From contig JAFXTN010000037.1 of assembly GCA_017535785.1 (NCBI GenBank), positions 310,001-374,000 of the forward strand: a stretch of DNA of 64,000 bases, read 5' to 3'. This document shows, one piece after another, positions 1,144 through 3,283 of the stretch; position 1 is the stretch's first letter; every line of letters starts with the position of its first letter. Below the pieces are notes generated by a model, which worked only from the letters and a program-made list of their open reading frames with translations, searched no databases and was not told the DNA's origin. This stretch comes from Butyrivibrio sp. (lineage in GTDB: Bacteria > Bacillota > Clostridia > Lachnospirales > Lachnospiraceae). The position numbers and the translations under genes are program-made.

Positions 1144-1217
1144 ATTAAATTAGATCAAGAAAAGACATTAATTTTGGTATGTTTTATTTGTGCAAAATTG
1201 TGATATCATAATATTCA

Positions 1218-1246
1218 TCAACAAAAATGAACTATTTTAATATAAA
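1218..1246 (+). promoter_or_regulatory. Candidate leuA promoter
   Basis: TCAACA, a 17-base spacer, then TATAAA (1241-1246). Both boxes are imperfect, so this is a weak call. The 147 bases between the thiC terminator and leuA are very AT-rich. I see no T-box or leucine-rich leader peptide in them. Confidence 0.3.
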
Positions 1247-1291: not shown

Positions 1292-3283
1292 ATGAAAAAT
1301 TTCGAGAAATACCAGCGTCAATATTTTATGCCGCCTAAGTGCACATACGAGTGGGTTAAGAAGGATTATGTAGATCATCCGCCCATCTGGTGCAGTGTTG
1401 ACCTTAGAGACGGAAACCAGGCACTTATCGAGCCCATGAGTCTAGATGAGAAGCTTGAGTTCTTTACTATGCTGGTTGATCTTGGATTTAAAGAGATAGA
1501 GATCGGATTCCCTGCAGCTTCAGAGACAGAGTTTGAGTTTGCAAGAACTCTTATCGAGAAGAACATGATCCCCGATGATGTTACTGTTCAGGTTCTTACA
1601 CAGGCAAGAGAGCACATCATCAAGAGAACATTCGAGGCTGTACAGGGTGCACCCAGAGCGATCATCCACCTTTACAATTCTACATCTGTAGCTCAGCGTG
1701 AGCAGGTGTTCAAGAAGAGCAAGGAAGAGATCAAAAAGATCGCGATCGAAGGAGCTAAGCTTCTTGATAAATTAGCAAAAGAGACTACAGGTAATTTCTC
1801 TTTTGAGTATTCACCCGAGAGTTTCCCCGGAACAGAGGTTGATTACGCAGTAGAGGTTTGTAATGCGGTTCTTGATGTATGGAAGCCTACCAAGGAGAAC
1901 AAGGTTGTCATCAACATCCCTACAACAGTTGAGATCGCAATGCCTCACGTATTCGCTACACAGGTTGAGTATATAAGCAAGAATCTTAAGTATCGTGACG
2001 CCGTAAATCTTTCACTTCATCCTCACAACGACAGAGGAACAGGTGTCAGCGACGCAGAGCTTGGATGCCTTGCAGGTGCTGACAGGATTGAGGGAACTCT
2101 TTTCGGAAACGGTGAGAGAACAGGTAACGTTGATATCGTTACACTTGCACTCAACATGTATTCACACGGTGTTGATCCCGGACTTGATTTCAGCAAGATA
2201 ATGAAGATCGCCGAGACATACGAAAGACTTACAAGAATGCGCATCTACGAGAGACAGCCTTATGCAGGTCAGCTCGTATTTACAGCTTTCTCAGGCTCAC
2301 ACCAGGATGCTATTTCCAAGGGATTTTCATGGCACGAGCAGAAAAAGGACAACGGTATCTGGTCTGTTCCTTATCTTCCCATCGATCCCAAGGATCTCGG
2401 AAGAGAGTACGACGGAGACGTTATCCGTATCAACAGCCAGTCAGGTAAGGGCGGCGTAAGCTACATCCTTAAGACAAATTATGGTATGATGGTTCCTAAG
2501 GAAATGCAGTCTGACATCAGCTATACGATCAAAGATATTTCCGACAGAGAACACGCAGAGCTTTCACCTGCGAGGATTTATCAGATCTTTGAAGATAAAT
2601 ACGTCCACAACAACTACGTATTCAGAATTCCGGATTGTTCCTTCAAGAAGGTAGACGGAATCCTTGCTGAAGTTAAGATAATGCATTTTGACAACGAACA
2701 CGTTGTTGAGGCCAACGGTAACGGACGTCTCGATGCCGTAAGTAATGCTATCAAGCAGTATTTCAACATCAGCTATGAGCTTTCAACCTACGAGGAGCAT
2801 GCTCTTTCAAGAGGATCTTCTTCAAAGGCCTGCACATACGTTGGAATTACCTGCAAGGGCAAGAAGTACTGGGGTGTAGGTATCGACGAAGACGTTATCA
2901 TGTCATCCGTAAATGCTCTTGTTATCGCAGTCAACCAGATCGACGCGGTAAGGAACAGTAAGGAAGCCAAGGATGAGCGTATCAATACGATCATGAACTA
3001 CATCCAGGAGAATTACCTCACTGTTACTTTGGATGATCTCTCAAGACAGTTCTACCTGTCAAAGCCTTACCTTTCCAAGTTCATCAAGGAAAAGTCCGGC
3101 ATGACATTCGGAGACAATGTTAAGAGGATCAGACTCAACAAGGCTAGCACACTTCTTAGAAACGGCAACATGAAGATCGAGAAGGTTGCGGAGGCAGCAG
3201 GATATCAGAACGTTGAGCACTTCAACAGACTATTTAAGAAAAAGTACGGAATGACACCCGTTCAGTACAGAAGTACCAGATAA
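1292..3283 (+). CDS. leuA: 2-isopropylmalate synthase fused to a C-terminal AraC-type DNA-binding domain
   Basis: The enzyme part joins acetyl-CoA to 2-ketoisovalerate, the first step of leucine synthesis. It resembles the clostridial type-2 LeuA of about 555 residues: DLRDGNQ near residues 37-43, the metal-binding SLHPHNDRG near 240-248, and the LeuA dimer/allosteric domain around 460-550 (EANGNGRLDAV, SSSKACTYVG). The remaining 100 residues, about 562-663, are a complete AraC-family double helix-turn-helix with SKPYLSKFIKEKSGMTF and AEAAGYQNVEHFNRLFKKKYG. The frame is continuous with no sign of a frameshift. The start follows a good site, CCGGAGGG. AraC domains are usually joined to sensor domains, not biosynthetic enzymes, so this may be a leucine-responsive enzyme that also regulates transcription. 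The enzymatic call is secure; the regulatory role is inferred. Confidence 0.93.
   Translation: MKNFEKYQRQYFMPPKCTYEWVKKDYVDHPPIWCSVDLRDGNQALIEPMSLDEKLEFFTMLVDLGFKEIEIGFPAASETEFEFARTLIEKNMIPDDVTVQVLTQAREHIIKRTFEAVQGAPRAIIHLYNSTSVAQREQVFKKSKEEIKKIAIEGAKLLDKLAKETTGNFSFEYSPESFPGTEVDYAVEVCNAVLDVWKPTKENKVVINIPTTVEIAMPHVFATQVEYISKNLKYRDAVNLSLHPHNDRGTGVSDAELGCLAGADRIEGTLFGNGERTGNVDIVTLALNMYSHGVDPGLDFSKIMKIAETYERLTRMRIYERQPYAGQLVFTAFSGSHQDAISKGFSWHEQKKDNGIWSVPYLPIDPKDLGREYDGDVIRINSQSGKGGVSYILKTNYGMMVPKEMQSDISYTIKDISDREHAELSPARIYQIFEDKYVHNNYVFRIPDCSFKKVDGILAEVKIMHFDNEHVVEANGNGRLDAVSNAIKQYFNISYELSTYEEHALSRGSSSKACTYVGITCKGKKYWGVGIDEDVIMSSVNALVIAVNQIDAVRNSKEAKDERINTIMNYIQENYLTVTLDDLSRQFYLSKPYLSKFIKEKSGMTFGDNVKRIRLNKASTLLRNGNMKIEKVAEAAGYQNVEHFNRLFKKKYGMTPVQYRSTR

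What the first reader, a model, noticed from the sequence alone, without database searches (positions are those of the whole stretch)
1292..3283. 2-isopropylmalate synthase carrying an AraC-type DNA-binding domain
A complete type-2 LeuA, including its leucine-sensing dimer domain, runs without interruption into a complete 100-residue AraC double helix-turn-helix. A feedback-regulated enzyme joined to a DNA-binding domain could report leucine level directly to transcription: the allosteric domain would take the place of the usual ligand-binding domain. I know of no described leucine-synthesis enzyme of this build.
Basis: partly seen in the sequence, partly recalled or inferred. Interest (0 to 1): 0.75.

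Follow-up and report, generated by a model that had tools for sequence, protein, structure and literature searches.

The report
Leucine enzyme carrying gene-switch domain
In many gut and rumen bacteria the first enzyme of leucine synthesis carries a DNA-binding tail, and a matching DNA site sits in front of its own gene (and of the next pathway gene in one genus), so the enzyme itself very probably switches its own pathway.

Summary
The ORF at 1292-3283 is real: a 663-aa protein with a complete type-2 LeuA (PRK03739 type) and a complete AraC double HTH, the only such LeuA found in its genome (a Butyrivibrio relative). It is no artefact: the fusion is full-length in 72 of 79 genomes of the genus and 76 of 298 Lachnospiraceae genomes sampled; rare copies elsewhere look transferred. 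The tail is at least as conserved as the leucine-sensing domain. It was found (PWM >8) upstream of 66 of 68 fused genes and 3 of 3 split genes, and 0 of 55 leuA genes without the HTH. Six genes that seem to have lost the HTH lack the site; four transferred genes keep it. In the genus, all 53 matches to a pattern fitted to its variants lie upstream of leuA or leuC. Best explanation: a trigger enzyme, LeuA-HTH, binding this operator to control leuA and, in part of Butyrivibrio, leuCD. Binding, leucine dependence and sign of control are inferred, not shown. My searches listed no description in print.

The parts
1292..3283 (+). leuA-HTH gene, 663 aa: 2-isopropylmalate synthase fused to an AraC-type double helix-turn-helix
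   Evidence: ORF; domains
1385..2215 (+). catalytic TIM-barrel domain (HMGL-like), residues 32-308
   Evidence: residues matching Mtb R80, D81, N83, E218, H285, H287 are R39, D40, N42, E176, H243, H245 (and H379, Y410 are H337, Y361 in the next domain), read by me from the alignment; all invariant over 30 sequences
2273..2473 (+). IPMS_D2 subdomain, residues 328-394
   Evidence: low-confidence region of the AF2 model
2558..2941 (+). LeuA_dimer, the leucine-sensing allosteric domain, residues 423-550; G476-N477-G478 invariant
   Evidence: modelled at pLDDT 82-94 by blocks over 431-550, 65 over 421-430
2942..2989 (+). variable linker, residues 551-566 (mean column identity 0.46)
2990..3274 (+). 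AraC-type DNA-binding domain, residues 567-661; seven helices from 562 to 661; recognition helices about 591-602 and 641-652
1145..1181 (+). predicted LeuA-HTH operator, 37 bp, half-sites about 22 bp apart; PWM 26.0 (21.6 when near relatives are left out of the training set)
1201..1209 (+). extended -10 promoter element TGnTAnnAT, 19 bp after the operator; no -35 hexamer in the composite
1208..1244 (+). second, weaker operator copy overlapping the expected transcription start; PWM 11.4

Best explanation
LeuA-HTH is a trigger enzyme: a leucine-feedback-regulated 2-isopropylmalate synthase that is also the transcription factor for its own gene, and in the window's branch of Butyrivibrio also for leuCD. 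Most likely mechanism: the LeuA dimer presents two AraC-type domains on flexible linkers to two half-sites about 22 bp apart, placed against the missing -35 box, and recruits RNA polymerase to an extended -10 promoter when leucine is scarce. Leucine in the regulatory domain, which joins the HTH directly through the linker, then inhibits the enzyme and changes how the HTHs meet DNA, lowering transcription; the second site over the start point could help shut-off. Supported by comparative evidence: the architecture, conservation of both parts, the operator, its link to the HTH and its target genes. Inferred: physical binding, leucine as signal, activation rather than repression. The confidence given is for the core (this protein binds the operator and controls leuA); the activating version within it is about 0.6.
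For: Fused ORF in 72 of 79 genus genomes and 76 of 298 family genomes. HTH halves 0.76 and 0.80 mean identity against 0.74 for LeuA_dimer and 0.46 for the linker. 37-bp motif upstream of fused leuA: >15 in 59 of 68 and >8 in 66 of 68 (48 of the 68 were in the set that the matrix was built from); 3 of 3 split genes; 0 of 55 leuA without HTH. Of the 20 fused genes not used for training, 14 >15 and 18 >8. With relatives of 80% identity or more left out: 56 of 68 >15, 63 of 68 >8. First-order Markov null: maximum 7.3 of 680. Strict pattern: one site in each of 14 of 20 fused genomes, each upstream of leuA (positions); 0 of 30 non-fused genomes; reversed pattern 0. Tree: HTH-bearing genes sit in one 79-row set (70 fused, 3 split, 6 without; SH-aLRT 89, below the tool's 95 mark), and the 6 nested genes without HTH lack the site. 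The copies in other families or class, G721, G607, G723 (in the training set) and G1068 (not in it), have it, while the second, unfused LeuA of G094, G169, G607 and G721 lacks it. Genus pattern: 53 sites in 79 genomes, 27 upstream of leuA (1 a contig-end copy), 26 upstream of leuC. Promoter geometry.
Against: No binding, expression or leucine data exist here. Two of 68 fused genes (L215, L219) show no recognisable site and seven score only 8-15. The window's own site is a divergent version: its genome has no match to the strict or the looser pattern. The looser pattern gave 26 sites in 20 genomes, 8 of them not at leuA or leuC, with 2 reversed-control hits. The genus pattern was fitted to variants already seen and has no match in 41 of 79 genomes. 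The motif holds an inverted repeat about as strong as the direct repeat (0.213 against 0.195), so the direct-repeat reading is not forced. 13 of the 68 fused genes also have a T-box string, so leucine status is partly read by tRNA there. leuC sites were found in only 6 of 30 fused genomes, all 6 in the genus; three of these six score low (6.3-10.1) because of a 1-bp longer spacer.
Confidence: 0.85

Rival explanations
1. Shares the core, differs in sign: LeuA-HTH binds the site as a leucine-dependent autorepressor, the leucine-bound enzyme blocking the promoter.
For: A second copy overlaps the expected start point in the window (1208-1244), and end-product repression is the usual logic of amino-acid genes.
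Against: The conserved main site ends where a -35 box would be, no -35 hexamer is conserved, and the -10 is extended, which is the layout of an activated promoter.
Confidence: 0.3
2. The operator belongs to a separate, unlinked transcription factor; the fused HTH has some other role or none.
For: No binding data; two of 68 fused genes have no recognisable site.
Against: The site goes with the HTH through nested absences, splits and transfers to other families, is absent from 30 of 30 non-fused Lachnospiraceae genomes, and the HTH recognition helices are strongly conserved.
Confidence: 0.08
3. The tail is a passive or structural add-on (oligomerisation or enzyme tuning) without DNA binding.
For: Split forms suggest that the enzyme part can exist alone.
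Against: The recognition helices (0.88, 0.87) are more conserved than the HTH domain as a whole (0.76, 0.80), and the three split loci keep both an HTH frame and the operator.
Confidence: 0.04
4. Sequencing or assembly error joining two genes.
For: None found; two of the three split cases sit on homopolymers, where an indel could break a fused gene.
Against: Same ORF in 72 of 79 genus genomes and 76 of 298 family genomes.
Confidence: 0.005

Closest known systems
LeuA, 2-isopropylmalate synthase, PRK03739 type (M. tuberculosis LeuA, PDB 1sr9)
   Same: Catalytic and regulatory domains and the catalytic residues tested; top sequence and fold matches.
   Different: Carries an AraC-type DNA-binding domain after the leucine-sensing domain.
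AraC/XylS transcription factors
   Same: Complete seven-helix double HTH; predicted two half-sites about 22 bp apart beside the -10 promoter, comparable to the direct repeats bound by XylS (PMC5481539, passages) and the araI1-araI2 pair (PMC4760080, passages).
   Different: The companion domain is a whole biosynthetic enzyme; a survey of companion domains of transcription factors (PMC5882156, passages) has no occurrence of HMGL or isopropylmalate in its main text.
Trigger enzymes with their own DNA-binding domain: PutA, BirA
   Same: An enzyme that regulates genes of its own pathway (PMC6978683, passages).
   Different: Different pathway and DNA-binding domain (ribbon-helix-helix in PutA, winged helix in BirA; recalled); both are described there as repressors.
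Ada (AraC-type HTH joined to a methyltransferase; recalled, no call)
   Same: AraC-type HTH on an enzyme.
   Different: DNA repair, switched by self-methylation; not a biosynthetic enzyme with end-product allostery.

Membership tests
2-isopropylmalate synthase (LeuA) | HMGL-like catalytic domain plus LeuA_dimer regulatory domain | tested here: met
2-isopropylmalate synthase (LeuA) | metal-binding and catalytic residues | tested here: met
   R39, D40, N42, E176, H243, H245, H337, Y361 aligned to Mtb residues and invariant over 30 sequences; roles of R80, N83, E218, Y410 from PMC10464499 passages, the rest recalled
2-isopropylmalate synthase (LeuA) | enzyme activity and leucine inhibition | not testable with these tools
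   needs assay; GNG of the regulatory domain invariant
AraC/XylS DNA-binding domain | two HTHs over about 100 residues | tested here: met
   HTH_18 69.7 bits against cut-off 33.6; seven helices 562-661
AraC/XylS regulators | conserved candidate operator near the promoter | tested here: met
AraC/XylS regulators | direct-repeat half-sites | tested here: inconclusive
   direct repeat at 22 bp scores 0.195, inverted repeat 0.213
Trigger enzyme | same polypeptide is active enzyme and transcription regulator | not testable with these tools
   comparative support only
T-box-regulated leuA | T-box leader upstream | tested here: not met
   no Rfam hit at gathering score in the window (no lower threshold tried); other fused genes do have one

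The most novel reading that the evidence does not exclude
A feedback-inhibited biosynthetic enzyme has become the dedicated leucine sensor and transcription factor of its own pathway: one leucine-binding event sets both enzyme activity and gene expression. The circuit arose once at about the base of a large Lachnospiraceae branch, replaced or was layered on T-box control, travels by gene transfer together with its operator, was lost several times together with it, and recruited leuCD in part of Butyrivibrio.
Probability: 0.6. Interest if true: 0.88.

Novelty: new variant of a known kind. Interest (0 to 1): 0.8.

Why it matters
It would add leucine synthesis to the short list of pathways run by an enzyme that is also the transcription factor, with an operator precise enough to test at once. 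It makes a general question testable: can one allosteric site set both catalysis and transcription, and how is such a circuit gained and lost? It also suggests how many gut and rumen Lachnospiraceae control leucine synthesis, and gives a natural template for leucine biosensors.

Tried and rejected
Sequencing or assembly error: rejected. Chance HTH or decaying tail: rejected. Rfam element upstream in the window: none at gathering score. Strict 37-mer as a universal pattern: 6 of 20 fused genomes, the window's own among them, have no match, hence the looser pattern (no match in the own genome either) and a genus pattern with a variable spacer, fitted after seeing genus sites. Loose-pattern hits outside leuA and leuC (L247, L265, L266, L268, L269, L270, L271, L272) are unexplained. 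leuC as a family-wide target: rejected, site in 6 of 10 genus genomes and 0 of 20 others checked (in G271, G338, G195 and G089 the best LeuC match is only 44-48% identical and may not be the pathway enzyme). AF2 relative placement of HTH and enzyme: not used (pTM 0.54, low-confidence stretches 322-344 and 356-387). Foldseek rows shown are LeuA and other aldolase-type enzymes; no match to the tail alone among the 50 shown. Independent fusions with the other LeuA type (TIGR00973) were not searched for. Literature: five searches on the fusion itself or on leucine regulation in these bacteria listed 1, 0, 1, 0 and 5 papers; none looks relevant by title and abstract start, and none was opened. Only CC-licensed PMC papers are held. 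Searches were for context.

Full report
OBSERVATION. The window holds one uninterrupted ORF, 1292..3283 on +, 663 aa. Pfam gives HMGL-like 32-308, IPMS_D2 328-394, LeuA_dimer 423-550 and HTH_18 583-661, each above its gathering score; NCBIfam's best model, over residues 5-549, is PRK03739 2-isopropylmalate synthase. In its own genome (2.9 Mb, 39 contigs, 90.8% complete) this is the only LeuA of this kind found; the other 30 matches are AraC-type tails and one weak 28% match to part of the catalytic domain. Its nearest named relative is Butyrivibrio sp. INlla21, 98%. The gene stands alone: a ThiC-like ORF lies upstream and a peptidyl-prolyl-isomerase-like lipoprotein downstream (names by my reading of the translations).

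NOT AN ARTEFACT. The fused ORF runs the full length in 72 of 79 genomes of the genus (one of the 72 has an in-frame TAG; the other seven are three partial matches and four genomes without a match). Named relatives include Butyrivibrio hungatei, Acetitomaculum ruminis, Faecalicatena faecalis and MAGs labelled Coprococcus, Mediterraneibacter and Acetatifactor. By my count of the tables, fused genes are in 76 of 298 family genomes, 15 of 196 in the order sample, all in the same family, 11 of 293 in the class sample, three of them in two other families, and 4 of 348 in the phylum sample, one outside the class. The samples overlap.

BOTH HALVES ARE CONSTRAINED. Catalytic residues mapped through the alignment to M. 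tuberculosis LeuA are invariant over 30 sequences. Over 50 fused proteins non-redundant at 90% identity the linker averages 0.46 column identity, LeuA_dimer 0.74, and the two HTH halves 0.76 and 0.80; the recognition helices average 0.88 and 0.87, and S595, I598, E642, F644, R646 and F648 are invariant. AF2 builds the tail as seven helices, pLDDT 82-89 by blocks from residue 571 to 660 and 74 over 561-570; the relative placement of the domains is not reliable (pTM 0.54).

THE OPERATOR. Reading the upstream regions of the 50 fused genes showed a shared block. A 37-bp PWM scores >15 upstream of 59 of 68 fused genes and >8 in 66 of 68, in 3 of 3 split genes and in 0 of 55 leuA genes without the HTH, whose maximum is 5.1. 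48 of the 68 were in the set that the matrix was built from; the 20 held-out genes gave 14 >15 and 18 >8, and leaving out all relatives of 80% identity or more gave 56 of 68 >15 and 63 of 68 >8. L215 and L219 have no recognisable site. The best of 680 Markov-shuffled upstream regions scored 7.3. In the 64-kb window only two places on either strand score above 5: 1145 (26.0) and 1208 (11.4), both in front of leuA.

PROMOTER GEOMETRY. Aligned on the site, 54 promoters show the 37-bp motif, then TGnTAnnAT at 57-65, an extended -10, with no conserved -35 hexamer between; flanks carry little information. Half-sites repeat at 22 bp, but an inverted repeat is equally strong. In the window the operator is 1145-1181 and the -10 is 1201-1209. 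The site thus ends where a -35 box would be, the place of AraC-type activators.

TARGETS. The strict pattern (up to 3 mismatches) occurs once in each of 14 of 20 fused genomes, each time upstream of leuA within 633 bp, and in 0 of 30 non-fused Lachnospiraceae genomes; the reversed pattern gave none. The window's own genome is among the 6 without a match; its site is a divergent version. A looser pattern gave 26 sites: 16 at leuA, 2 at leuC, 8 unexplained, with 2 reversed-control hits. A pattern fitted to Butyrivibrio variants gave 53 sites in 38 of 79 genus genomes, 0 in the reversed control: 27 upstream of leuA (one, L316, ends at a contig end 172 bases after the site, all 172 identical to the leuA upstream region on another contig of that genome) and 26 upstream of leuC. 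The own genome has exactly two, one each. leuD follows leuC there (LeuD by my reading). Of 30 fused genomes checked, 6 of 10 in the genus and 0 of 20 outside have the site at leuC (three of the six score only 6.3-10.1 because the spacer is one base longer).

CO-EVOLUTION. In a quick tree of 128 LeuA domains, 70 fused and 3 split genes fall in one set of 79 rows with 6 genes without HTH (SH-aLRT 89, so not among the strongest branches); well-supported branches force at least 4 changes for the group without HTH, so several losses are likely. The 6 nested genes without HTH score -16.1 to -23.5 and have no HTH in the 244-1500 bases examined downstream. The three split genes (L094, G128, G141) have the HTH just downstream in another frame and keep the site. 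Copies in other families or another class have it (L168, L169, L170, which were in the training set; G1068, which was not), while the second, unfused LeuA of four genomes lacks it.

RELATION TO T-BOX. A T-box string is seen upstream of 25 of 55 genes without HTH and 13 of 68 fused genes; in these 13 the operator lies upstream of the T-box (for L069 and L076 it appears only when 900 bases are searched). Rfam confirms T-boxes in members of both groups (chosen loci, not a frequency). None was found in the window. So the predicted operator acts at initiation and is either added to or replaces the T-box.

MECHANISM. Supported: architecture, constraint on both parts, an operator tied to the HTH by presence, absence and transfer, and its targets. 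Inferred: that this protein binds the site, that leucine is the signal (the leucine domain joins the HTH directly), and that the upstream site activates. The second site over the start point (1208-1244) could serve shut-off.

WHAT IS KNOWN. PutA and BirA are accepted enzyme-regulators of their own pathways (PMC6978683, passages). AraC-type half-site pairs near the promoter are described for XylS (PMC5481539, passages) and AraC (PMC4760080, passages). Searches on the fusion itself or on leucine regulation in these bacteria listed no paper that by title or abstract start describes a LeuA with a DNA-binding domain; only openly licensed PMC papers are held, and I saw passages only of the papers named here plus PMC5882156 and PMC10464499. 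I file it as a new variant of the trigger-enzyme kind.

Noticed in passing
L228 2192-2560 (G141), L094 6660-6680, L227 2721-3070 (G128): Three split leuA/HTH loci: two break at homopolymers (A8, G7) in the linker, one has a separate 114-aa HTH ORF overlapping the leuA stop. They could be sequencing indels, frameshift sites or true gene fission.
   Followed up: partly
L270 1501 (G238:C1:1290233): Operator-like site followed by a -10-like element outside leuA and leuC; target gene not identified.
   Followed up: no
L063, L128, L133, L138, L213, L216, L222: Fused leuA genes with a T-box leader (Rfam) downstream of the predicted operator, suggesting two layers of leucine control.
   Followed up: partly
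L303 (G1068), L168 (G721), L169 (G607), L170 (G723): Fused leuA with its operator in other families and one other class; G721 and G607 also hold an unfused LeuA. Looks like lateral transfer of gene plus promoter.
   Followed up: partly
L346 3282-6058 (own genome C6): leuC and leuD are followed directly by a glycosyltransferase-like gene (my reading), which the predicted operator may therefore also control.
   Followed up: no
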